From: Butyriboletus loyo
Taxonomy: Eukaryota > Basidiomycota > Agaricomycetes > Boletales > Boletaceae
Assembly (NCBI GenBank): GCA_038093515.1
Contig: JBBPSI010000008.1
Span: 62,001-126,000, forward strand
Reading direction: 5' to 3'
Length of the DNA stretch: 64,000 nt
The notes below the pieces were generated by a model. It searched no databases, was not told where the DNA came from, and worked only from the letters and a program-made list of their open reading frames with translations. Positions within the stretch are counted from its first letter, which is position 1. Each line of letters starts with the position of its first letter. Made by a program: the position numbers and the translations under genes. Of this stretch, positions 1 through 14,770 are shown piece by piece.

Positions 1-1078
1 TTAGGATGCAGCACGTCGAGGGTGTAGTGTCCGCCCAAGGCAGACCATGGTGGTACATACTACAGTACTATGGTAGCAATGGGTCACCATTGTGGTGCAG
101 AGGCCGGAGATGTGCTTACCACCAAAGAGATTATACTGCGTCCCGTGGAGTTTCTTCTCCAGAGCCACTACCTCTACATACAAGGAAAAATGTTACGATC
201 ATGCAGACTGGACGGTCTTTGGTCACATCAGGACCGATACATTTCATCCCGTCAATTGTTGAACGCTCGAATGTTGAGCTGAATTCATGGGGACTATTAA
301 AGTGGTACAGGGATCAATTCGGATTGGGAACAGTGCCTCTAATGTCTTGGTTGCACATCTTCTATGGGTTGTCTTTTGCTATGGAGGAATGACCAGGTTG
401 TTTGTGCACTTGAATGTCACTTCCAGTTTGAACTGATTTACAGCAGTGGTGAGAGTTTGCTTCTTCAGCTGTATATACATAGTTGTGCAGTCATGTGAAC
501 AAAGCATCATGATCTTGATGTTCATCTTCTTCTGTTGGTTGGTACTGCAGTTGCAACACATGAGCTCCACAGGATACTGGTAGCTTCATTTGTCACACAA
601 ATTATCCTATGCCCATCTTTGAGAGAACATCCTTTTTGATCTACCAAATATGGTCAACAAAAGGTGATAAAAAAATAGTGTTTCTCCAGGCCACCTCACT
701 GCACATATGTACTTTTCAGTTGAGTGAAAAACTCAGCAGAATCTGGCAACATCAACTGGCACATAACATTATTCCAGTTCTCAATACTATGATTATGGAG
801 GAAAATATGTGGTTGGCTGGGAATTGACATGTGAAGAATGTTAAAGAACTTTGATGAATGTTTTGGAAGGTACAAAGGTTGAACTTTGTGGAAAAACAGA
901 AGGAAAAAGAAGATTCTGGGTCAGGCCAGACTATCAGTACAAATGTGGGGAAAGCAAACAGATTGCAGGAAAAGAGAAAGAAAGGATAGGGTAAGTCATC
1001 TGGCAAGTCATAACATTTTAGCTATGCATTGGCCTATGCTATAAGACAAGTTAGTATGTAGAAAGTTGTGTCACTTCA
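1..1078. other. Unresolved AT-rich stretch beyond the GTPase stop codon
   Basis: I could not build a gene here. The base composition is AT-rich like the GTPase gene beside it. On the minus strand there is a short frame ending with a GTAAGC donor near 118 and another open stretch around 180-300. On the plus strand there are short frames at 609-827 and about 889-990; the last is lysine-rich. These could be exons of a neighbouring gene cut by the window edge, or transposon remains. The two strands give equally plausible peptides over 180-390, so I do not choose between them. Confidence 0.3.
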
Positions 1079-4000
1079 CTACCTACACAAAGGGTGCTGC
1101 TTTATGATGTCCATGACAAGGTCCACTTTTTCACCTTCAGATTTGGTGGCAAAATGTTTGGATAAGATCTCATCCAGTTTCTTTGATATCTGAGCAGATA
1201 CCCCAGATGCTTTATACCTTTCTTCTGCTAAGGCAAAGGGATTTTCAGATTTATTTTGGACCAGAGTGAAGGAATATTGAAGAAGTAGTATAAGGCCTAT
1301 GAAAAGATATCAGGGTTGTGAAAATTCAAAATGAATTAACTTACCAATGCCATGTTGCAGAACCTTTCTCTCAGCATTGGTTCTCTTTTTGATCTGAAAT
1401 ACATAAAGAGTTAATACAGTAAATACAATTTCATGATTGTACATGCCACCATGGTCTTTGCCTCTGTTGGTTGAAGAGAACTCTGAAATGAATGAAATTG
1501 TTGTAGCAATTAGTATGATCAAATGATAAATGATTTACCAGGGAGGACTGAGGGTTGGTGACAATCTGCATGATGTCAATTGCAATATAAAGACCTTCAA
1601 GTTAAAAACTGACACTCTGGTCAGGTTATGAGTACAATATGTAAACAATCACATATATGTCTTACCTCCTAAATGTGGATAGAGCATAAAAGTAAATAAC
1701 ATAAATAAGATTGCATGGAAAAATAAGCTTACATCCTATAGGAATGATAATCAATTCATAGCTGCATAACTATTACAGTAGCAAGATAATACTTACCAGC
1801 TAAGTATACCAGAAGTTGGGAAATAATAGGGTTATGTTAAAATTTTAACATAAACAGAGGTTTCATGAGCAGAATGCAGATTTCAATTGTGAATGAGATC
1901 ACTTGCATTCTATTTGGAAGAAAACATGAGAGGCAGGCATGCACATATTAGTAATACATATTGGAACAATATATCATGTGATTTACCCTCTGAAAGAAAG
2001 AGTGAAGTGGGCAGATAAATCATTTTCATTTTCCAATGTCAGGTCAGATCACTCACTGTCTGTTAATGAGAAAGCAAGAAAAGGAACCATGAAGTAATCA
2101 GCAATCAATATTATATTTTTACATGCATACAAAGATGCTCACAAACTAGTATCCAAATAACCATAGAAGCAGGCAGGTCAACCATCAGAGAGAAATCAGT
2201 GACAGCATCTGACATGGAGTCCATATGAGACCACATACATCCTGTGAAACAAAGAGCAGTAGGGAGGATACTTCTTAGCAGAATTTTCATTTTAAATGTA
2301 CATCAGACTGCTTACTTCCTATCAATGGAAGAGCACAAGGAAAGCTCATCAACAACATTGTTCTGTCAAATTCATGTTAGATCACTTACTTGCTATCAAT
2401 GGAGGGGAGAAAGTGGGATGCTCATGAGCAACTCTACATTTTGAATTCACATTACATGACTCACTGCCTATCAGGAGGAGAGAAATAGGGGGAATGCTCA
2501 TCAGTACCATCTGCAAATTCACATCAAGCTACTTACAGCCTATAAATGGGGGAAAATAGGAGGAATGGTCAGCAGCACCATTCTCATTCCAATTCACATC
2601 TGGCCACTTACATACTATCAATGGGGGGAAATAGAAGGAATGGTCATTAGCACCATTCTCATTCCAATTCACATCTGGCCACTTACATACTATCAATGTG
2701 GGGAAATAGGAGGAATGGTCATTATCACCATTCTCATTCCAATTCACATCCAGCCACTTACAGCCTGTCAATGGGGGGAAATAGGAGCAATGGTCATCAA
2801 CACCATTCTCATGCAAATTCACATTCAGCCACTTACATCCTAGCAATGGGGGGAAATAGGAATGGTCATCAGCACCATTGTCATTCCAATTCACATCCAG
2901 TCACTTACAGACTGTTAATGGGAGGAATGGTCATTAGCACCATTCTCATTGCAATTCACATCCAGCCACTTACAAGCTATCAATGGGGGAAAATTGGAGA
3001 AATGGTCATGAGCACCATTCTTATTCAAAATTCACATCCAGACACTTACATACTGTCAATTGGAGGAATGGTCATGAGCACCATTCTTATTACAATTCAC
3101 ATCCAGTCACTTACAGCCTGTTAATGGGAGGAATGGTCATCAGTACCATTCTCATTCCCATTCTCATTCCCAGCCACTTACATGCTATCAATAGGAATGG
3201 TCATCAGCACCATTGTCATTCCAATTCACATCCAGTCACTTACAGACTGTTAATGGGAGGAATGGTCATTAGCACCATTCTCATTGCAATTCACATCCAG
3301 CCACTTACAGACTGTTAATGGGAGGAATGGTCATTAGCACCATTCTCATTGCAATTCACATCCAGCCACTTACAAGCTATCAATGGGGGAAAATAGGAGA
3401 AATGGTCATGAGCACCATTCTTATTCAAAATTCACATCCAGACACTTACAACTGTTATGGTAGTGGTATACTTTTTCTCTCCATTACCGTTGGGACTACT
3501 TCACTCGCCTAGCCTTTTGCTAGTGCCTGTTGAGCAGTACGAGCCGCTCTAACTTAGTCATCACTTCTCGCGCACGGACGCGCTTTCTCTCATACTCCGG
3601 AATCTTCTAGAGTATTCCTTCCATATGTAACTTCCCTTCTCGCGACTCGATTAGGGACATGGTCTGTGCGCAGACTTCAGGTAGTATAAAGGCCCTGCCT
3701 TTCCACCATGTACATTATCTAGTTCTACGCAGTAATCTGCTAGCAATTAGTTTCACTCCAGACTCTTAGTGTGCGCACTAAGACATAGTCTGAGACCCAG
3801 CTCAGAAACGCTTGACGAGTCTCGAGGCCACTCCAGAGTGCCTCCTCGCTGTTCAATTGTTAGCGCCCAGCGTAACAAAAGAACTAGATCTTCCTCTCGC
3901 TTCTGCTCTTCAGCAGTAAAGCCGCCCCACCGCCCAACATTTCCATCCAACGTCCCAGACGCGTCGGTCGTTCTTTCCGCGTTCCCTCTCCCGAACCGGA

Positions 4001-7000
4001 ACCCATCGTCGTCGACAACCCATCGCCACCACACTCTCCCGCCCCGCCAAACCCTGAACCCCAGTTTTCCCCTTTGCCCCAGTTAGACCCCGAACCCTCT
4101 TATCAACCCGAGGACCAGGGTCAAGGGCAGGAAGACGAACCGGCACCTAGCGACGACGGATACAGCGACGACTGGCTTGACAGAACCCCACACGTCTCCC
4201 CACACAACTCCCGCTCTCCCTCTCCACCGTATTTCCCACCCGCAGACTCCTCTGACGACGAAGACAACGACGAGATGTCCGACAAAGGAAAGATCGTCCC
4301 CAAGGACTTCTCTGGACTCAACGAAGATGCTTCGCGATGGCTCCTCGCCATGCGCACGTATTTCGCCGCCAACCAGACAGCATTCCCCGACGACGAGTCA
4401 AAAATCAACGCCCTCCTCATGAAAATGAGCGAAGGGAAAGGCAAGACGTTCTCCGAAGGCTGGATGGGCCTTCTCCTAGATGGAAACCCTACTGCGCGAC
4501 AAAGGGAGTTCACCACCGTCTGTGAAGACTTCCATCGAGTCTTCCATCCCTTCGACGTAGGAGAGAGTGCTCGCATCGACCTGGGAAACCTAAACCAGAA
4601 CAGAGCCAACAAGAAAGACGGCTACGACACTTACGTCACGGAGTTCCAGCTCCTCGCCGCCAAGTCCGGAATCATAGATGAGAAGGCGCTCATCGAGTGG
4701 TTCATTCGCGGTCTCGACCCCCGCCTCGCCGAGTCCGTCCTCTCTTGCGAGAAACCCCCTACCACGCTTGCCGGATGGGCTGAGAAAACATCCGCATTCC
4801 ATGCGCAACACAAGCGCATTGACGACCTCCGCGCCGGGAAGCGCTACATCCCCACGTTCTCCTCCTCCTCCAAGCCCTCGTCTAACAGAAGGGACCCCAA
4901 CGCGATGGACGTCGACGCCGTCCGACTTACTCCTGTACAACGTGCGGAGTACATGAAGCAGAACAAATGCTTCATATGCCACCAAGTCGGATGTCGCTCG
5001 ACCAACCATCCCCGCTCCCCACGCAACGGACAGAACTCTCGAGGACCGCCCCCTCGTCCCCCTCGCAACCCTCAGCGCACGCGCGCCGCCGTCGTCACGC
5101 AACCCGAGCCAAAGCCCTCCCCACTCGTCGACTATCTGTCCGAGTTGAAAGGTCGAGGCACCCAACAAGAAGATGTCTTGAACGTCCTCAAGGCATGCTT
5201 CAATGAGGACGAAGAAAAGCTGCCCGTCGCAGCAACCAAGGTGGCCGAAGAATGGCCAAAGGATTTTTAGAAAGGAGGGAAGTTTCGACGTCTTCGCCTC
5301 CTCTTGTAATCGCCCCTGTAGTTATATCAAACCCCAATGCACAATCAATTCGAGTTCCCGTCTCTCTATTCGTGCACGAAGGGGGTCAAATCGTCGACAC
5401 ATTCGCCCTGGTGGACAGCGGCGCAAGCGGATGCTTCATAGATCGCGATCTAGTGAAGCGAAAGAAATTACCAATGGAACGGTTACCCAAACCACTCAGT
5501 GCCCAGAACGTGGACGGGTCAAACAATCAAGGAGGAGTTATTCGACACAAGGTCACCCTCTCCATCAGAGTTGGAGAAACCGAGGAGGAACGGAGTTTCC
5601 TAGTCCTCAACATAGGAAAAGAGAACATGATCTTGGGATTGCCGTGGCTACGAGAGGCCAACCCGGTAATAGATTGGGCCACTGGCCACATCGATCTCCC
5701 CGATCAAATCAAGAAGCCCCGACACGACTCCCCTCGGGCAATCGCTCAACGGTACCTGGTACGGTACCTTGACTTGGACCCAGACTCCAAGATCGCCAAG
5801 CTCTGGAAGAAGCGAGTGGACGCTTCAGCACGGGACGCCTACCCTATCAGAAAGGCAACCATCGCGACTGAGATCGCCGCCCAAGCCGTCAAGGAGAAAG
5901 CAGTTCTCCCAACCCCGTTCAAGTCCTTCGCGGACGTTTTTGACAAGAAGAACACTGAGGAACTACCCCCATCCCGATCTTTCGACCATGCTATCGACCT
6001 CGACAAAGACTTTGTCCCAAAAGTCGCCAAGGTCTACCCCCTGAATCCGAAAGAGTCGGAGGCCTGCAAAGCTTTCGTCGAGGAACACCTCAAGTCGGGA
6101 AAGATCACTCCCTCAAAGTCTCCTCAAGCTGCCCCCTTCTTCTTCGTATCCAAGAAGGATGGCTCGCTACGCCCCTGTCAGGACTATAGGTACCTGAACT
6201 CGCATACCGTCAAAAACGCCTACCCTCTCCCCCTCATCTCCGACCTCGTCGACCGCCTCAAAGGATCGAAGATCTTCACCAAGATGGATATCCGCTGGGG
6301 ATACAACAATGTCCTCATCAAGCCGAACGACCGCTGGAAGGCGGCCTTCATCACTCCTCAAGGGCTGTTCGAGCCCACCGTGATGTTCTTCGGACTTTGC
6401 AACTCCCCAGCTACGTTCCAGGCTCTGATGGACCACATCTTCGGCGACCTAATGGCAGAAGGATGGCTAATCATCTACATGGACGATCTGCTGATTCACT
6501 CCGCCACCTCTGCAGAACACGAGGCACGAACGATCCGCGTCCTGGAACGACTTCGCGAACACAAGTTGTTCCTCAAACTGGAAAAGTGTTCGTTCGATGC
6601 CGAAGAAGTGGAATACCTCGGGATGATGGTCCGAGAAGGGCAGGTCAAGATGGACCCGACCAAGTTGAAAGCCATTCGCGAATGGAACCCCCCGACCTCG
6701 GTGAAGGCAGTCAGGTCCTTCATCGGGTTTTGCAATTTCTACCGAAGATTTATTCAGGACTTCTCCCATATTGCGAAGCCACTACACGACCTGACCAAGA
6801 AGAACTCCCCCTGGGCCTGGACCCCGGCTTGTGAACAGGCGTTCCAAGCAATCAAACAGTCGTTCTTACGACAACCCGTCCTCTCCATGCCCGACGTCAC
6901 CAAACCGTTCGCCGTCATGACGGACGCCTCCCTTACTGCCACTGGGGCAGTCCTTATGCAAAAGGACGTCAACGGCGACCTCCATCCCTGCGCATACCTC

Positions 7001-10000
7001 TCCAAGACGCTCTCCCCGGCAGAGCGCAATTACGACATCTACGACCGCGAACTGCTCGCAGTCATTCACGCGTTAGAAGAATGGCGACACTACCTGCGCG
7101 GTACTGGTCACCAGGTCGAGATTCTCACCGACCATAAGAATCTCACGTACTTTCGGCAACCCAATAAGTTGTCTCGCCGACAAGCACGTTGGCTCATGTT
7201 CCTGCAGGATTTCGACCTGCATTTCCACCACATCCCGGGTACCCAGATGGGCCCTGCCGATGCCCTATCCCGCCGCGACGACGTTGACACCTCCGCCGAC
7301 AACCAGGAAGTGACCCTCCTCCCCGAAAATCTCTTCGCTCGCAAAATCGACGTCGCCCTTGCGGAAAAGATCGCCGCCTCCACCCCCGGCGATCCCATGA
7401 TTAAGCGTTGCATGCAAGCTCTTTACGAAGACTCCCCGCTCTTTCCCAAAATGAATGCTGGGGATTGGGACTTCGATGGTAAAGAGCTGTATTTTCGCAA
7501 GAAGCGCTACATCCCCGAGGAAGCACGCGTCGACCTTATCCGGTCCTTGCACGAGAGTCCCGCTGGAGGTCACGGTGGAATCTTCCGCACCCAGAATCTG
7601 GTGCAACGTGATTATTGGTGGCCGGGCATGGCTAATTTGGTCCGCCGCTTCGTCTCTGGCTGCGCTGTCTGTCAGGCGCACAAGGTTAATACTCACCCCA
7701 CCGTGCCCCCTCTCACTCCTCTGGCCAGCGTGGCCTCTCGTCCCTTCGAACAGGTCTCGGTCGACCTCATCACCGGTCTCCCTCCCTCTCTGGGTTATGA
7801 TTCTGTCATGGTCGTGGTAGACCATGGGCTTACGAAGGGGGTAATTTATTCCCCTTGCAACAAGGACATTGATGCGGCAGGAGTTGCCAAGTTATTTTTC
7901 AAAACAGTCTTCCTTCGATTCGGCCTACACTCTCGCTGCATCTCTGATCGAGGTCCTCAGTTCGCATCCGCCTTTGCCAGAGAACTCGCAAGGCTCCTAG
8001 ACTATGACCTCGCCCTCTCCTCCGCCTACCACCCTCAAACCGATGGCGAGACCGAACGAGTCAACCAGGAATTGTGTTACGCTGATAGCGCACAATAACT
8101 AGCAGCGAGCACTTGACTAGGGGCTCGAGCCTAATAAGGAAAGTGCCGACTCGCGTGAACGACGCTATCGGGTGTCTTGCAAAGCAAGTGTCGGCGAGAT
8201 CTTGTGTGGTGGCGACCAGACGAGATCGAGCAGGCTCTTATCGGCTTTATCGGCAAGAGGGTATGATGCTAGATTACTATGCACTTGGTAGATGCGTAGA
8301 ATTAGCTAAAGAACTCGTACTACTCTAAGTACGATCTTATATACTTGGAGGGTATCGTGCACAGACCGAGCTGTGCGTGGCAGCGAGGGCAAAGGGCTAT
8401 GAGTCCGTCCGAGTCATAGCGGCGAAAGAAGGAAGCGGCAAAGTGCCGGTAACGAGGGAGCGAAGCTCCGAGTAAGATGGCGACATCGTCAGCGAATAGG
8501 AAGAGCTGAAGTCGAAGTGACGATGTCCATGAGGCGAGCCCCACAGGGCGAAGGGTGCGCGAACGGCGGAGCCCTTGGATACGGGTCTCGACGCGAAGGT
8601 ACTGACGCGTCGTAATCTAGTCACGTGCTAGTCACGTGATGTAAGAAATGTCATTGGTCAAAGAAAGAGGGACGCGACAGCTCAGCTGAAGGTCCGGCCC
8701 GACGGGGCGAGAAGACAGGGGCTATCTCGTGCAACGGCACAGAGACTCGCAGGAACGAGCGGGGAAGTGGATGGCATCCACTAGGCGACTGGGGAGCGGG
8801 CGATGGGCGGCATCGCGAGGCGGCGGGGGCGGCGGGGACGCGTAAGCGTGGGAAAACGAGTGGCGGGGTACGCTTAGGGGTAAAACTGTAACAAATTGGA
8901 GACTTACCTACGGATCTTCTGTGACGGACACCCAGAGCGTTGGGCCGAGCTCCTTCCCATGGCCGAGTTTTCCCACAACTCGATGACGCATTCCTCGACA
9001 AACGTGACCCCGTTCTCCCTGATGGTCGGATATGAACCGAGGTCTTATCCTCCAATCGGAAAGACGTTCCTCCCCGCCCTCGAGTCCAGACTCTCGGAAC
9101 TCACGGGAGCCCGAACGGAAGCTTTAGAAGCCCACGAGAAGGCACGGCGACTGATGAAGGAACGGATCTCGTCCAAGTTCCGCCCGTGGAAGACAGGCGA
9201 TAAGGTTTGGCTGGAAGGGCGCAACCTTCGACTCAGGTACCCGTCGAAGAAGCTCGCCCCTAGACGGGAAGGTCCGTTCGAAATCGCACAGGTCATCTCC
9301 CCTGTGGCGTACAGGCTCCGACTACCGCCGACATGGAAGATCCACGATGTCTTCCACGCGTCCCTCCTGACCCCTTATCGCGAAACGGCAGAACACGGCC
9401 CGAATTTTACCAACCCCCCTCCGGAAGAAATAGACGGAGATGAAGAGTACGAGATCGATCGGATCTTGTCCCATCGCGGCTCGAAGGGACGCCGTCAGTT
9501 CCTTGTGTCCTGGAAAGGATATTCCGCAGCAGAGAACACCTGGGAACCAAACGGGAACCTGGTCCATGCGCAGGCCTTGCTCAAGGCTTATAAACTGCGC
9601 CACCCCAAGGACTTTCCCTCCCCATCTTCGCAGTAAAACTCGAAAATGTCCATCTCCCCAGTCGAAAACAACGCTTCCTCTGCTGCCAATGACAACAATG
9701 AAAACCTTCCCCTTCCGCCGCAACCCCCAGTCCGCTCTTCTCGTCTTCCTGTTTCATCCCGCCGCGTTCTCTACGCCGCCGTTCTCGAAAATCCCGTCGC
9801 CACGTACGCGCTCGAACAGCGCATGGACTTCACCGGAGACTACGTCCTCCGCACCCTCGCCTCTCTATACCGCTCGTACGCCCTCGCCCGTACCGTCCAC
9901 ACACGTCTGTGCCCAGACAACCAACCCCCCGTCTATGCCGCCGCCCTTGAGTCGTCCTTGATGGAGGCTAGGGGCTACACCCTTGATATCCTCCACGCCG

Positions 10001-13000
10001 AAGGATTCGGTTACGTGGTTGATCAGCTGCTGCCAGGTATTCTGGCCCCAGTCCTTCGTCCTATCCTCATCGCGCTTGCTCCTAGAGAGCGGCAATTCTA
10101 CCTCCACTCCGCCGACCGCATCGGCTACCTCCGTCCCATGGCTCGCGGCCCCAATCCAGTGCCTCGTCCTCCCCCGGCAAGATCTCCTTCGCCTGTACCT
10201 GTTCCAGCGCCATCCGCTCGAGAGTCTCCTGCAACCACGCTGGTAGCAGACTCGTCTCGTGAGACCACAGGAGAGTCCTTGGAGTCCTTTCGGACCGACG
10301 TCGACGAGCCCCAGGTCGCTCGTCGACACTCCCCCCTACCGCCTCGTACAGTGCGTCGCCAACCTCGCCAGGCGTTACTCCAGGTCGGAGCAATCCCTGG
10401 ATCAGTCACCCTTACCGCCGCAGGACGAAGAATCGCCAACCGAGCCATCCGCTCCGTCACCCCCCAACCGTCCACCCGTCGAGGAACCCCCTCGATCCAG
10501 CTCATTCCCCGCGTCACTACCCCTGCCGTCGCAGCTGGTAGCTCTAATGACTCCTCCTACGGACCCCCGCCACCCTACCTCGCCAACCGGGGCACTCGTG
10601 ATTCCCCTATCATCGTCGACGACAGATCTCCTGACCCCAGCCCGGGCCTTACTCGACCTCGCCTCGTCCGCCCGCAACTCTGCTTCGAGTGCGGGACCGT
10701 CGGCCACTTCCGCAGGGACTGCCCCAACTACACCTGTCCGTTCTGTCACCGCATCGCCCCTGGTCATATACAGGAGTTTTGCCCAGAACGCGTCTGCGGC
10801 TTATGCGGCGCCATTGGCCATATCGTCGCCAACTGCACGTTCCGGGACGACGCGTGGGCGGAGTTACCTGCCGATGATCCTTATGACTACGACTTCAACG
10901 AGGGAGCGTCTCAGTGAAGGGAGTATTCAAGTTGTGGAGTCGGAGTCTCCACCATGGGAAGGGGGTAATGTTACGGTAGTGGTATACTTTTTCTCTCCAT
11001 TACCGTTGGGACTACTTCACTCGCCTAGCCTTTTGCTAGTGCCCGTTGAGCGGTACGAGCCGCTCTAGCTTAGTCATCACTTCTCGCGCACGGACGCGCT
11101 TTCTCTCATACTCCGGAATCTTCTAGAGTATTCCTTCCGTATATGTAACTTCCCTTCTCGCGACTCGATTAGGGACATGGTCTGTGCGCAGACCTCAGTA
11201 GTATAAAGGCTCTGCCTTTCCACCATGTACATTATCTAGTTCTACGCAGTAACCTGCTAGCAATTAGTTTCACTCCAGACTCTTAGTGTGCGCACTAAGA
11301 CATAGTCTGAGACCCAGCTCAGAAACGCTTTACGAGTCTCGAGGCCACTCCAGAGTGCCTCCTCGCTGTTCAATTGTTAGCGCCCAGCGTAACAACAACC
11401 TGTCAATTGGAGGAATGGTCATCAGCACCATTCTTATTCCAATTCACATCCAGCCACTTACATCCTATCAATGGGGATAAATAGGAGGAATGGTCATCAG
11501 CACCATTCTCATTCCAATTCACATCCAGCCACTTACATGCTATCAATGGGAGGAAATAGGAGGAATGGTCATTAGCACCATTCTCATTCCAATTCACATC
11601 TAGACACTTACATCCTATCAATGGGGATAAATAGGATGAATGGTTATGAGCACCATTCTCATTCCAATTCACATCTGGCCACTTACACACTATCAATGGG
11701 AGGAATGGTCATCAGCATCATTCTCATTCCAATTCACATCCAGCCACTTACAACCTGTCAATTGGAGGAATGGTCATCAGCACCATTCTCATTCCAATTC
11801 ACATCCAGACACTTACATCCTGTCAATGGAAGAGCAACAGGAGCAATGCTCATTAGCAGCATTCTCATTTCAAATTCATAACTGACCACACACCAACTAT
11901 CAATTGGAGAGCAGCACAAGGGATACTCATCAGCACCAATTTCATTTCAAAACCACATCAGACCACTTACAAACTATCAATGGGAGAGTAGCAGGAGAGA
12001 TGTTCATCAGCACATTCTCCTTTCAATCAACATGAGTCCACCTACATCCTATCATTGGGAGAGCAGCAGGAAAAAAACAGAGGAAAAATACCAATCCATA
12101 ACAGGATGCTCATCAGTAACATTCTTACATTAAATCCATGTAAGACCACTTACATCCTATGAATAGGGGAGTAGAGGAGGCATGTGTGTCAACAAAATTC
12201 TCACTTCAGATGTATTCACCATAGATCACTTACTTGCTATGCAATACCAAGGACATTTATCATGAGCTATCTCATTTTAATTCCACATCAGAGTGCTTAC
12301 AATCTTTCAATTGAAGAGCAGCACAGGGTGGATTCATCAGCAGTGCTTGGATTTTATATTCAGAGAGAATACTTACCAGCTATGAAAGGAATGTACAGCA
12401 CATAGGCCCATAGTCAACACCTTGCTTCAGAATGCATACTTGATCACCTACAAACTATCATGGAAATGGCAGTTGTTGAGATGGACGCAAAGTCATCAAT
12501 AAAGTTATTTTTTCACCCATATGCCACTTACTTTCTTTATATTAATGGATATGAAAGTATTAGTTTTGTGTCTTTCAGGTATAATCAGACCACTTACTTT
12601 CTATCATATTACATCAACACAAACATCAAACTCATTCTTAGTGCATTTCAGATCACTTACTCCCTAATGATACCAAAATAGCAATAGACATGAACAAATC
12701 CATTATTAATGTGCTGATTTGCATGTATTCCTGTGTGACTTACTCCCTTTGAAATCAAATCCTTGATAAACAGGAACTCATATTTTCAAGTCTGCATTAG
12801 ATTACTCACCAGCTATTAATGCAAGAGTGATAGAATAGGTTAAATGAATGTTTTTGTTTTGATATTTCACTTACACCCTGTTAGTATCATAAAGCATGTG
12901 AGCTTATCATAACTTCAATGCATAATGTATCACATACTCTCTTCATGGACAGAATTAAACAATCAATCAGTAAGCTCTTTTTGATTTCATGTTATGTTAA

Positions 13001-14542
13001 TTACCTAGCCATCCATCAATATCATTCAAGCATAATAATATTTTCATCCCAATAATTTTGGAATAACTTAAATTCTTACCATTGTGTGTGGAAACCAACT
13101 TGCCAATGCCTCACCCAGATTGAGATTTCGCTTTTGAGCAGTCCTGGACTCAGCATAAGGTACCAAGACACTTCATGGTATCAATATACTATGCTTTACA
13201 CCCAGAACATGGTTCACTTACTGTCTGACTGCATACTCAATGCAGAGCAGGATATTCTTTTCCTGTGCTGTAACCAACAACATCTGCAGTGATGCATCAT
13301 TCAATGCAGCTGCAGTCTCTCTCAGCAATGTGTGACATCCTGTGTCAGATGTATCCATGTCTGGAAATATGATTAATACAAGAGAATAGAGATGAGAGCA
13401 TATATGTACAAACTTTCCAGCTTCACATATGCCTGTGGGGGGAATACCATCTTGCTCAGATCCTTCCATATATTTCTCTTGGCAAAGATTTCTTCAGCAT
13501 GCTGCCTCTGCTTCACAAGTTGATCTTCTAGAGGCTGATTTAGATAATTAGGCTGAAATGCCTGTATGATAAGTGCATCCCATTTGGTAAATAGCACAAT
13601 CACTGGCACTAATACCCAAACCAATCAGCTCAGACAGCATTATCATGAAAAATTATCACCTTTTCTGGTGTCACATTCACAGAAGAACCTTTCTTCTGCA
13701 ACAGTGATAGCACGATGATGTTGATCCATTGGAATGCAGTACCTGCTTGTATAAGAGTCATCAGGACCTAGTGAAATAATGCCCACTCACCAGATGGCAT
13801 GAATTCGCTTTTCAAGGAAAGTTGTACTGGCACGCTCCGTGATGAAGTCCTTTGTCTTGTCGAACTCATCCTCACGACCAGCCTCAAAACCAGCAGAGTC
13901 ATGGAAGACAAATTTCCCGTTGCTTTTGAAAACCATCTCATAATTGATATCATGGAGTCCACGCTGTGAAACATGAGACAGCTTGCAAAAGCACTGGAAA
14001 TGACATGGACGTAGCCATGACACTCACCTCCCTGGATCCCTGGATCGCAAAGTCAACCTGATCACATGTCCACAGCATTAGCATCCGGTATATCTCAGCT
14101 TTATCAACCCTACCTTTTCTCCTTGATGGTGGATCTCCGGATCTTCCGTCGCGTTGCATATACTCTGAAGGATGGTCGTCTTGCCGGCATTCGCCCTGCC
14201 GATGATGAGGATTCTAAATCGTCCAAATTTCTCCATGAGATCCGGGTCAACATGTTGCATGAACGTCCGCATGTCAACAGCACCCGAGTTGCCAGGGTGT
14301 GGCTCGAGAGAGGTGGGATCTGTGGCCTGCTCCTTGGGCGCATCTGAATCTTTGTGCTGTGTTCCAAGGGCCAGCGCATCGGCCCCTTTGGCTTGGGTCA
14401 GGAGAATGTCTGAATCGCTGGGGACTGCGTTGGGTTGCATGTTGGGTGCATGGGAATGCTGGGAACTTGAAGGTGCCGGAGACGAATCTTTACTGGCGGT
14501 GCCGGATCGGAGGCGTCGAATTAGTTGTTTGAAGGCCTTCAT
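1079..14542 (-). CDS. P-loop GTPase with about 46 three-base exons, split by a retrotransposon
   Basis: This is a predicted GTP-binding protein of 525 residues. Ordinary exons are 14542-14114, 14057-14028, 13963-13791, 13742-13660, 13608-13414, 13360-13222 and 13143-13080, and, after the micro-exons, 1565-1539, 1482-1450, 1393-1345 and 1296-1079. Visible motifs are the P-loop GRANAGKT (residues 115-122), DSAG (175-178) and TKWD (246-249), the G1, G3 and G4 boxes. These place it in the P-loop GTPase families expanded in agaricomycetes; its partner and role are unknown. Residues 372-417 would come from 46 three-base exons. Summed exons give 1578 nt, divisible by three, with no internal stop. 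The start is the first ATG in frame, 14542; an upstream GTG at 14611 is also open. Two donors are weak (GTTTGT after 13414, GTGGCA after 1450). A gypsy element sits inside one micro-exon, so this copy may be disabled. The G domain is secure; the full 57-exon model is inference. Confidence 0.72.
2530..3452 (-). repeat. Homogeneous intron-like tandem repeats, left of the element
   Basis: About 13 units of 62-75 bp with high mutual identity. On the minus strand each unit runs from GTAAGTGGCTGGATGTG through CTGATGACC and a C/T-rich tract to ATTGATAG or ATTGACAG. A block near 2866-3060 is repeated almost exactly near 3195-3455, so some units arose by segmental duplication. Outside this stretch (1666-2530) the same unit is recognisable but more diverged. 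Repeat spacing equals intron plus three bases. Confidence 0.85.
3448..3452. repeat. Target site duplication ACAAC, left copy
   Basis: Five bases directly before the 5' LTR, repeated at 11395-11399 directly after the 3' LTR. Removing the element and one copy restores a normal repeat unit, with acceptor CAG, triplet GTT and donor GTAAGT on the minus strand. Confidence 0.93.
3453..3877 (+). repeat. 5' LTR of the gypsy element
   Basis: Starts TGTTATGG and ends GCGTAACA. It matches the 3' LTR apart from eight substitutions, a 2 bp indel near 3620 and a 1 bp indel near 3681. It carries a TATAAA box at 3685. Confidence 0.95.
3685..3690 (+). promoter_or_regulatory. TATA box of the LTR promoter
   Basis: TATAAA followed by GG, inside the 5' LTR and conserved in the 3' LTR. 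It is the likely core promoter for the element's genomic RNA. Confidence 0.6.
4275..5270 (+). CDS. Gag of the gypsy element
   Basis: Retrotransposon Gag, the capsid and nucleocapsid precursor. From the first ATG in frame it has 331 residues: a helical capsid-like part with conserved tryptophans and a DxGESARIDLGNL-like stretch, then a basic arginine-proline tail. The only zinc-binding motif is an atypical C-x2-C-x4-C-x4-H (CFICHQVGC...H) near residue 236. The frame is open upstream to a stop at about 3886 but has no ATG there. That upstream part is proline- and acid-rich and may be translated from a non-AUG start or a spliced leader. The stop codon follows a run of five T, and pol begins in the -1 frame with a 19-base overlap, which suggests -1 frameshifting or reinitiation. 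Confidence 0.85.
   Translation: MSDKGKIVPKDFSGLNEDASRWLLAMRTYFAANQTAFPDDESKINALLMKMSEGKGKTFSEGWMGLLLDGNPTARQREFTTVCEDFHRVFHPFDVGESARIDLGNLNQNRANKKDGYDTYVTEFQLLAAKSGIIDEKALIEWFIRGLDPRLAESVLSCEKPPTTLAGWAEKTSAFHAQHKRIDDLRAGKRYIPTFSSSSKPSSNRRDPNAMDVDAVRLTPVQRAEYMKQNKCFICHQVGCRSTNHPRSPRNGQNSRGPPPRPPRNPQRTRAAVVTQPEPKPSPLVDYLSELKGRGTQQEDVLNVLKACFNEDEEKLPVAATKVAEEWPKDF
8075..8893. mobile_element. Solo LTR of a second retrotransposon family
   Basis: An 819 bp insertion with TGTTACGC...CTGTAACA ends and a 5 bp target duplication AATTG at 8070-8074 and 8894-8898. It has no internal coding region, so it is what remains after recombination between the two LTRs of a longer element. It shares the TGTTA...TAACA termini of the host element but is otherwise different in sequence and nearly twice as long. 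Confidence 0.9.
8622..8638. promoter_or_regulatory. Paired CACGTG boxes in the solo LTR
   Basis: Two CACGTG palindromes at 8622-8627 and 8633-8638, 5 bp apart, followed near 8653 by ATTGG (reverse CCAAT). They are possible bHLH-factor sites of the LTR promoter. Function is inferred only from the motif pair. Confidence 0.3.
9646..10917 (+). CDS. Third ORF of the gypsy element, triple zinc-knuckle protein
   Basis: A 423-residue protein beginning nine bases after the pol stop and ending just before the polypurine tract. The first ~150 residues look folded and helical. The middle (about 160-330) is proline-, serine- and arginine-rich. The C-terminus holds a CCHC knuckle, CFECGTVGHFRRDC, then two more Cys-rich knuckles (CPFC..., CGLCGAIGHIVANC), and an acidic tail. 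CCHC knuckles usually bind nucleic acid and normally sit at the end of Gag. Here Gag has only an atypical one, so this ORF may supply the nucleocapsid function. It is not an envelope-type protein: I see no signal peptide or membrane segment. The frame is intact although pol is broken. Confidence 0.85.
   Translation: MSISPVENNASSAANDNNENLPLPPQPPVRSSRLPVSSRRVLYAAVLENPVATYALEQRMDFTGDYVLRTLASLYRSYALARTVHTRLCPDNQPPVYAAALESSLMEARGYTLDILHAEGFGYVVDQLLPGILAPVLRPILIALAPRERQFYLHSADRIGYLRPMARGPNPVPRPPPARSPSPVPVPAPSARESPATTLVADSSRETTGESLESFRTDVDEPQVARRHSPLPPRTVRRQPRQALLQVGAIPGSVTLTAAGRRIANRAIRSVTPQPSTRRGTPSIQLIPRVTTPAVAAGSSNDSSYGPPPPYLANRGTRDSPIIVDDRSPDPSPGLTRPRLVRPQLCFECGTVGHFRRDCPNYTCPFCHRIAPGHIQEFCPERVCGLCGAIGHIVANCTFRDDAWAELPADDPYDYDFNEGASQ
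10956..10965 (+). other. Polypurine tract
   Basis: GGGAAGGGGG, three bases before the 3' LTR. It is the expected primer site for plus-strand DNA synthesis. Confidence 0.75.
10969..11394 (+). repeat. 3' LTR of the gypsy element
   Basis: Starts TGTTACGG and ends GCGTAACA, 426 bp. It contains the matching TATAAA at 11202-11207, which could drive transcription out into the antisense strand of the GTPase gene. Confidence 0.95.
11395..11399. repeat. Target site duplication ACAAC, right copy
   Basis: Partner of the copy at 3448-3452. On this side the acceptor CAG and triplet GTT survive, but the donor reads GTTGTT into the LTR instead of GTAAGT. Confidence 0.93.
11402..12060 (-). repeat. Homogeneous intron-like tandem repeats, right of the element
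   Basis: Continuation of the same repeat family on the other side of the retrotransposon. Units are most alike at 11402-11820 and decay outward toward 13,000, where only the splice signals stay recognisable. The gradient suggests that the middle of the array expanded most recently. Confidence 0.82.
11462..12940 (-). other. Right micro-exon array: 21 three-base exons
   Basis: Each unit reads, on the minus strand, YAG or AAG, then three bases, then GTAAGT or a close variant. Left coordinate and triplet, in transcript order: 12938 AGA, 12875 GGT, 12810 CTG, 12744 GGA, 12661 GGA, 12598 AAA, 12532 AAA, 12452 TTT, 12377 CTG, 12301 ATT, 12234 CAA, 12154 GAT, 12046 GAT, 11971 TTT, 11894 TTG, 11817 GAT, 11752 GTT, 11687 TGT, 11612 GAT, 11537 CAT, 11462 GAT. 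None is a stop codon. Introns are mostly 60-80 nt (one 105). Acceptors at 12938, 12744, 12532 and 12301 are AAG, and the donor at 11894 is GTGTGT, so these five are less sure. Many introns carry a CTGATGA branch-like motif and then a pyrimidine tract. Splicing is inferred; no transcript was seen. Confidence 0.62.
13080..14542 (-). other. G-domain exon block of the GTPase
   Basis: Seven conventional exons separated by introns of 47-78 nt. Exon phases are 0, 0, 2, 1, 1, 2 and 0 in order, and each junction restores a sensible residue (for example W211 across the 13791/13742 junction and N304 across 13414/13360). The last exon ends in WFPHTM, after which the gene changes to three-base exons. The N-terminal ~100 residues are low-complexity and rich in S, P, A and Q. 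Confidence 0.85.
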
Positions 14543-14770
14543 CGCAGGAGTGGCCAAGATCGCTGAGAGACGAATGTAGCTTGGGTGGTGGTGAATACGA
14601 ATGATGGACACCGTGGAATTACAGGTGCTGCTGACGGGAAATGCCGCGCACTGTAATCGGCCCCTTTTTCACATAAGGATTAACGGGGCTGGACCAGTCG
14701 AAGAGAGGAAACTCACTTTGTGGTGCGGAAGGGTCGTGGAATTACTCCCTTCAAGAGGCCCAGCGGATGA

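What the first reader, a model, noticed from the sequence alone, without database searches (positions are those of the whole stretch)
1666..12940. A protein segment apparently encoded one codon per exon: 46 consecutive three-base exons
On the minus strand, between the last G-domain exon (13080) and the first C-terminal exon (1565) of a P-loop GTPase gene, I count 46 units of the form acceptor (YAG, sometimes AAG), three bases, donor (mostly GTAAGT). The introns between them are 59-107 nt and often carry a CTGATGA branch-like motif and a pyrimidine tract. All 46 triplets are sense codons, and they connect the flanking exons in phase 0 with a total CDS of 1578 nt. About two stops would be expected in 46 random triplets, so their absence alone is weak (chance roughly 0.1). 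The stronger points are the constant length of exactly three, the strict splice signals, and real coding exons on both sides. Some choices (the acceptor at 1566, several AAG acceptors) were made to fit the frame. Exons this small normally escape exon definition, so a run of 46 would need an unusual, purely intron-defined mode of splicing. I know of no described case.
Basis: partly seen in the sequence, partly recalled or inferred. Interest (0 to 1): 0.97.

Follow-up and report, generated by a model that had tools for sequence, protein, structure and literature searches.

The report
Protein segment built from one-codon exons
In a bolete-type fungus, a family of GTPase genes appears to spell a stretch of protein one amino acid per exon, tens of exons in a row, with the codons scrambled between near-identical introns; if confirmed in RNA, this would be a new kind of gene architecture.

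Summary
On the minus strand, 46 units of acceptor, three bases, donor lie between two phase-0 exons of a GTPase gene; the spliced frame is 1578 nt with one terminal stop. Of 20 sequences examined from the same 30-Mb assembly, 17 carry such a chain, 502 units in all. Pairs of consecutive 3-nt exons occur 207 times genome-wide; the 4-nt and 6-nt versions occur 0 times. In the array centres, of 78 pairs of units whose two whole introns are identical, 69 differ in the triplet, always at codon positions 1 or 2 and never at 3. The residues of the last units (D-F-x-N-L-D) recur uninterrupted at the same place in transcript-like Boletales proteins. Of 194 homologues held, 116 end within 50 residues of where the array would begin. 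Against: no RNA of this species was available, and end triplets of near paralogues are no more conserved than introns. The window's own copy carries a retrotransposon in one unit and may be dead. Best reading: real one-codon exon arrays that encode a hypervariable segment of a GTPase family.

The parts
14114..14542 (-). GTPase exon 1, start codon, G1 motif GRANAGKTT
14028..14057 (-). GTPase exon 2
13791..13963 (-). GTPase exon 3
13660..13742 (-). GTPase exon 4
13414..13608 (-). GTPase exon 5 (FTKWD)
13222..13360 (-). GTPase exon 6
13080..13143 (-). GTPase exon 7, ends WFPHTM in phase 0; the donor GT(A/G)AGAATTT is the same in all 11 loci (of 17 scanned) where this exon end was found
11971..12940 (-). 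5' older part of the array; first bases of the triplets: 12940 AGA, 12877 GGT, 12812 CTG, 12746 GGA, 12663 GGA, 12600 AAA, 12534 AAA, 12454 TTT, 12379 CTG, 12303 ATT, 12236 CAA, 12156 GAT, 12048 GAT, 11973 TTT
   Evidence: same or nearly the same triplets in paralogues
11397..11896 (-). array, TTG unit and start of the hypervariable centre: 11896 TTG, 11819 GAT, 11754 GTT, 11689 TGT, 11614 GAT, 11539 CAT, 11464 GAT, 11399 GTT (the last split from its donor by the retrotransposon)
3453..11394 (.). LTR retrotransposon inside the GTT unit; LTRs identical at 416 of 424 aligned bases; target duplication GTTGT
2537..3376 (-). array, hypervariable centre after the element: 3376 CTT, 3311 TCT, 3246 TCT, 3184 CAT, 3117 GCT, 3052 TAT, 2976 CTT, 2911 TCT, 2839 GAT, 2764 GCT, 2689 TAT, 2614 TAT, 2539 GCT
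1666..2467 (-). 3' older part of the array: 2467 GCA, 2392 CAA, 2318 GAA, 2241 GAT, 2145 TTT, 2059 ACA, 1989 AGG (weak donor), 1909 AAT, 1799 CTG, 1735 GAT, 1668 GAG (A-Q-E-D-F-T-R-N-L-D-E)
1539..1565 (-). first C-terminal exon (IVTNPQSSL), phase 0
1450..1482 (-). C-terminal exon
1345..1393 (-). C-terminal exon
1079..1296 (-). last exon with stop; GLILLLQYSF...ERYKASG aligns with homologues

Best explanation
The array is a run of real coding exons of exactly one codon each, in an expanded GTPase family of a Boletales fungus (the order is inferred from its homologues). Each intron (median 72 nt) is recognised by itself. Acceptor and next donor are only three bases apart, so they can hardly be occupied together; splicing would proceed intron by intron, each step leaving one codon behind and using the next donor. 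The outer units are older and spell a partly conserved peptide; the centre is younger, repetitive and hypervariable, with NNT codons, which can never be stops. Because every exon is one phase-0 codon, adding, losing, replacing or skipping units does not shift the frame. Array change therefore edits a variable part of the protein one residue at a time, plausibly a recognition segment. Shown: the units, their exact length, their recurrence in the family, the codon-position-specific variation, and the match of the 3' residues to homologous proteins. Inferred: splicing of the units, its order, translation of the centre, the ages, and the recognition role.
For: (1) 207 pairs of consecutive 3-nt exon units in the assembly, 0 for the reversed pattern, 0 for 4-nt and 0 for 6-nt exons. 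(2) Inside arrays of at least 12 units, 355 of 362 GTAAGT sites lie exactly 3 nt after the nearest YAG/AAG. (3) In the C6 array introns share about 50% identity in an ungapped comparison of positions 13-36, yet donors and spacing are kept. (4) 1 stop among 502 triplets, a stray in C164; 195 other triplets end in A or G. (5) In 149 central units codon positions 1 and 2 have entropies of 1.59 and 1.90 bits and position 3 has 0.06. (6) 69 of 78 pairs with both whole introns identical differ in the triplet, never at position 3; six control windows of three intron bases differ in 0 to 24%. (7) The last seven residues match P0003 EFANLDR better than shuffles of the same peptide at p<=0.003 in 9 of 10 loci (paralogues, so not independent; AGG/AAG unit left out in six of them); the tenth, C6, does so (5e-5) after a false unit is removed. 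The aligned segments of P0008 and P0036 are DFKNLTE and DFMNLLK. (8) 116 of 194 homologues held end within 50 residues of the WFP motif, and 71 of these show V-R or V-S soon after it, as if read into a donor. (9) The junctions of exon 7 (11 loci) and of the first C-terminal exon (9 loci) are kept. (10) Between C6 and C75 the first nine triplets differ at 3 of 27 sites; the intron interiors at 90 of 368 aligned sites plus 72 gap columns.
Against: No RNA from this species was available. Among near paralogues end triplets are not more conserved than intron interiors (5' end 5.6% against 4.6%; 3' end 9.5% against 7.9%). At the 3' end C395 against C149, C158, C254 and C411 shows triplet differences of 17-28% against 26-27% in aligned intron sites, so little or no excess conservation (those C395 triplets missed one unit later seen). 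A search with the C-terminal region alone found no homologue. The AGG residue is missing in P0003, P0008 and P0036. Enrichment for NNT-type residues in the variable segment of homologues reaches p<0.05 in 3 of 11 segments. The low flank entropy is partly built in, since units were chosen by intron identity (the pair test is not affected). That the short JGI contigs are transcripts is inferred from their uninterrupted frames. The window's own copy is interrupted by an element of about 7.9 kb.
Confidence: 0.86

Rival explanations
1. A minisatellite inside one long intron: a 65-75 bp repeat that happens to contain splice-like signals and is spliced out whole.
For: The centre is a tandem repeat, and a tandem repeat keeps any motif it contains: a three-unit version of the pattern occurs in 28 stretches of the prokaryote collection.
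Against: In the 25 of those 28 stretches that have three or more ATAG-NNN-GTAAGT sites, the triplet is the same at every site (3 have a single site), whereas here the triplet is the part that varies. Older units with about 40-50% intron identity keep donor, acceptor and 3-nt spacing. The end residues match homologous proteins.
Confidence: 0.06
2. Only the older outer units are exons; the hypervariable centre is skipped or is junk.
For: Only the outer residues match homologues, and the frame is kept either way.
Against: In the centre codon position 3 is invariant while 1 and 2 are scrambled. The six read-through JGI proteins and Pisolithus P0098 carry variable segments of 14 to 43 residues (limits set by me) at this place.
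Confidence: 0.1
3. The two variable bases are junction bases left by the way a 73-nt unit is multiplied, without protein meaning.
For: Triplet and flanks are statistically unlinked, and position 3 behaves like part of the intron unit.
Against: Usage is uneven: 14 of 16 NNT triplets occur, GCT 32 and CTT 23 of 149, with A in first position in only 5. Outer units have varied third positions and encode residues seen in homologues.
Confidence: 0.08
4. The arrays are relics in dead genes (this does not exclude the best explanation for their past).
For: The window copy carries a retrotransposon, and the arrays of C337, C46a and C164 run into other sequence.
Confidence: 0.07

Closest known systems
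Isolated 3-nt and 1-nt microexons (Arabidopsis APC11 1-nt exon, PMC4674806: abstract and outline seen; plant microexons PMC8831610: passages seen; Drosophila homothorax 3-bp microexon PMC7392893: search listing only)
   Same: Exons this small can be spliced.
   Different: Isolated exons, at most two adjacent microexons in the passages seen (5 nt and 12 nt in rice), not runs of tens of one-codon exons.
Aphid bicycle and megacycle genes (PMC9168663: passages seen)
   Same: Fast-evolving family with many small exons of uniform phase; the megacycle gene has more than 100 microexons.
   Different: Internal exons almost all of phase 2 and on average about 17 exons per gene; single-codon exons and scrambled codons between homogenised introns are not mentioned in the passages seen.
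Schistosome micro-exon genes (recalled; only named in listings)
   Same: Many short symmetric exons, variation by splicing.
   Different: Exons of several codons (recalled).
Recursive splicing at ratchet points (PMC8605326, PMC6110457: starts of abstracts in the listing)
   Same: Acceptor and donor side by side, stepwise splicing.
   Different: Ratchet points leave nothing in the mRNA (recalled); here three bases would stay per step.
Introner elements (recalled)
   Same: Near-identical introns in many copies.
   Different: Introners lie dispersed in ordinary exons (recalled); here they are in tandem with three bases between.

Membership tests
P-loop GTPase (MMR_HSR1-like G domain) | G1 motif GxxxxGKT and Pfam match above the curated cut-off | tested here: met
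   PF01926 24.0 bits, cut-off 21.9.
Microexon-rich gene (MEG or bicycle type) | many consecutive very short internal exons in uniform phase | tested here: inconclusive
   46 three-base phase-0 units predicted from DNA; no RNA
Microexon-rich gene (MEG or bicycle type) | homology to bicycle proteins or schistosome MEG proteins | not tested
   no direct comparison was run; the listed homologues that have names are Boletales proteins
Recursive splicing ratchet point | zero-length exon, acceptor directly followed by donor | tested here: not met
   355 of 362 GTAAGT sites are 3 nt after the nearest AG, 2 of 362 at 0 nt
Intronic minisatellite | variation not confined to two positions; signals not kept once copies diverge | tested here: not met
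Introner | dispersed near-identical introns in unrelated genes | tested here: not met
   the 55 matches of the NNV pattern were all listed and lie on contigs with this family (one search held); of the 207 matches only about the first hundred were listed; single dispersed copies were not searched for
One-codon exon array | spliced mRNA carries one codon per unit in order | not testable with these tools
   no RNA data held

The most novel reading that the evidence does not exclude
The arrays are a codon-by-codon diversity generator. Two bases of each central unit are randomised by a targeted process (or by extreme diversifying selection with homogenisation of introns only), giving a natural NNT library of up to 15 amino acids without stops. 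Skipping any subset of units at splicing would keep the frame, so one gene could make a combinatorial set of variable peptides, used by the fungus for self or partner recognition.
Probability: 0.3. Interest if true: 1.

Novelty: categorically new. Interest (0 to 1): 0.95.

Why it matters
Runs of tens of one-codon exons would be an extreme test of intron-defined splicing: tens of equal splice sites three bases apart must be paired correctly. The scrambling of two bases between identical introns asks how a genome can change a codon and spare its surroundings. And a variable protein segment may be missing from annotations across Boletales: 116 of the 194 homologues held end within 50 residues of where the array would begin.

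Tried and rejected
Repeat-protein reading: open frames cross parts of the central repeat on both strands (up to 142 aa in 1500-3450; up to 97 aa in 11400-13070), but unit lengths vary and no listed frame runs through either half of the array; I did not search these frames against databases. Structured RNA: no Rfam match at gathering threshold in 1000-14600. A hairpin around the branch-like motif has a stem of 6 or more in 78% of central introns against 21% in shuffles, but in 20-38% against 16-20% in the three other classes, whose mean stems are below those of shuffles; not used. Conservation of end triplets in near paralogues: no excess (in C159b and C46a I set gaps by hand). NNT-residue enrichment in homologues: 3 of 11 segments. 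A region-only homologue search gave nothing. The three-unit pattern in IMG/VR gave 0. Ten paper searches listed no paper that I recognised as describing one-codon exon arrays; the library lacks most subscription papers.
Full report
What is there. The minus strand of the window encodes a GTPase: exons at 14542-14114, 14057-14028, 13963-13791, 13742-13660, 13608-13414, 13360-13222 and 13143-13080, with a C-terminal part at 1565-1539, 1482-1450, 1393-1345 and 1296-1079. Pfam gives MMR_HSR1 above its cut-off. Between the two parts lie 46 units of the form acceptor, three bases, donor. My strict pattern finds 44; the other two are the GTT unit split by a retrotransposon and the AGG unit with donor GTAAAT.

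It is a family trait. The window is contig C8, 62001-126000, of a 30.3-Mb assembly in 420 contigs. A search with the N-terminal protein gives 57 matching segments, among them 12 copies of the first exon. I fetched 20 stretches, left out one that overlaps the window, and examined the other 19 and the window: 17 of these 20 have a chain of at least five units, 3 (C107, C146, C20) have none. C107 ends inside the G domain, C146 matches only residues 1-212, and C20 is a remote relative. The total is 502 units; C75 and C395 are identical over 16 of them, so some are counted twice. Nine copies begin with AGA GGT CTG GGA AGA GAA AAA TTT CTG ATT CAA GAT GAT TTT TTG or close to it, as far as they reach; copies that reach the other end close with GCA CAA GAA GAT TTT GCA AGG AAT CTG GAT GAG or close to it.

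It is not chance and not just a repeat. Two consecutive units (ATAG-NNN-GTAAGT, 40-70 bases, AG-NNN-GTAAGT) occur 207 times in the assembly and 0 times when the pattern is reversed. With four-base or six-base exons the pattern occurs 0 times. The 55 matches whose first triplet does not end in T were all listed, and their contigs all hold this family (one search held); of the 207 only about the first hundred were listed. A tandem repeat could keep such a motif passively: a three-unit version occurs in 28 stretches of the prokaryote genome collection. In 25 of these there are three or more sites, and within each the triplet is the same at every site, in 21 stretches GGA, mostly in what look to me like CRISPR repeats (not tested). 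In the fungal arrays the opposite is true.

The codon-specific variation. I took 149 central units by at least 85% identity of the following intron to a consensus, so their low flank entropy is partly built in. Codon positions 1 and 2 have entropies of 1.59 and 1.90 bits out of 2, and position 3 is T in 148 of 149. Fourteen of the sixteen NNT triplets occur. Among 125 units with both neighbours of this class, 78 pairs have both whole introns identical; 69 of the 78 differ in the triplet, where 89% would be expected if triplet and flanks were independent, and none differs at position 3. Six control windows of three intron bases differ in 0 to 24% of otherwise identical pairs, the highest at intron bases 27-29. 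So two bases per unit change far faster than what surrounds them. Diversifying selection on the encoded residue explains which positions vary; it does not easily explain the complete unlinking. I leave the cause open: targeted mutation, or selection together with homogenisation of introns only.

Older parts of the arrays. Outside the centre, and in C6 and C75/C395, introns show 40-50% identity in an ungapped comparison of positions 13-36 (which understates true identity), yet donors, acceptors and the three-base spacing are kept. Among near paralogues end triplets are not more conserved than introns, so that comparison gives no support. Between C6 and C75 they are (3 of 27 sites against 90 of 368 plus 72 gap columns), while the 3' end of C395 against the other copies gives little or no excess (one C395 unit with donor GTTGGT was missed there).

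Match to other species. The named homologues listed are Boletales proteins; the best is from Butyriboletus roseoflavus, 67% identical over 74% of the query. Both homologue searches were capped at 120 rows. Of the 194 proteins held, 47 have no WFP-like motif past residue 170, 116 end within 50 residues of it and 31 go on, one of these (P0184) probably by a chance motif; 71 of the 116 show V-R or V-S soon after the motif, as if a gene model had read into a GTRAG donor. Six JGI proteins on contigs of 1.5-1.8 kb read through (P0003, P0008, P0036, P0058, P0132, P0140); as the window gene has six introns in the G-domain part, I infer that they come from RNA. At the place of the array they carry a segment variable in length and sequence, followed in three of them by EFANLDR, DFKNLTE or DFMNLLK, which align with D-F-x-N-L-D of the last units. 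Against shuffles of the same peptide the match to P0003 has p<=0.003 in 9 of 10 loci and, for C6, 5e-5 once a false unit is removed; against P0008 and P0036 it is p<=0.004 in 8 of 10 loci each, weaker in C395 (0.03 and 0.04) and, with the false unit removed, 0.002 and 0.02 in C6. The loci are paralogues, not independent tests. The AGG/AAG unit was left out in six loci; its residue is not in those homologues, although a three-base unit stands at that place in C6, C158, C254 and C395 too, so it may be skipped or belong to this lineage. A Pisolithus annotation (P0098) carries 43 residues there of which 42 are of the kind NNT codons can encode; 8 of 11 segments tested show no such enrichment at p<0.05.

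How it probably works. With acceptor and donor three bases apart, splicing should go intron by intron; the introns between 45 and 125 nt, 470 in all, have a median of 72 nt, which suits intron definition. Retaining an intron would bring an in-frame stop in 377 of 470 cases, whereas skipping any number of units keeps the frame. This is inference from the anatomy. The function of the protein is unknown; a variable recognition segment on a switch-like GTPase is my guess.

State of the window's copy. A retrotransposon of about 7.9 kb (11394-3453, LTRs identical at 416 of 424 aligned bases, target duplication GTTGT) sits in the GTT unit. This copy is probably not functional now; conclusions about function rest on its paralogues.

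Literature. Ten searches of the paper library brought up isolated microexons down to 1 nt, microexon-rich gene families and recursive splicing, and no listed paper that I recognised as describing a run of one-codon exons. I saw the abstract and outline of PMC4674806 and passages of PMC9168663 and PMC8831610. [quoted passage not shown]

Noticed in passing
8894-8074: An insertion of about 821 bp with TGTTAC...GTAACA ends and CAATT on both sides lies inside the retrotransposon; it looks like a nested solo LTR or small element.
   Followed up: partly
L046 (C337), L040 (C46a), L051 (C164): Arrays in three other copies break off into other sequence, in C337 and C164 with similar motifs (CATATGA[TC]GTCATGG), so mobile elements may enter the arrays repeatedly.
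   Followed up: partly
central array introns, e.g. 11461-11403: A hairpin (GAATGGT / ACCATTC) encloses the branch-like CTGATG; some C6 introns have ATGCTG-CTGAT-CAGCAT. Not clear in the other intron classes.
   Followed up: partly
L049 (C6), L050 (C75), L057 (C395): Distant paralogues have arrays of a different make-up (many CAA and GAA triplets) without an NNT-only centre.
   Followed up: partly
contigs C75 and C395: They share 16 identical array units at their ends: probably one gene split by the assembly.
   Followed up: yes
all arrays, third base of triplets: C is almost absent before the donor (1 of 502 triplets, in a doubtful unit of C46a).
   Followed up: no
1-2000 and 12001-14000: GC is about 38% at the gene's array ends against about 50-57% in the 2-kb bins from 14001 on, 48.7% the lowest.
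   Followed up: no
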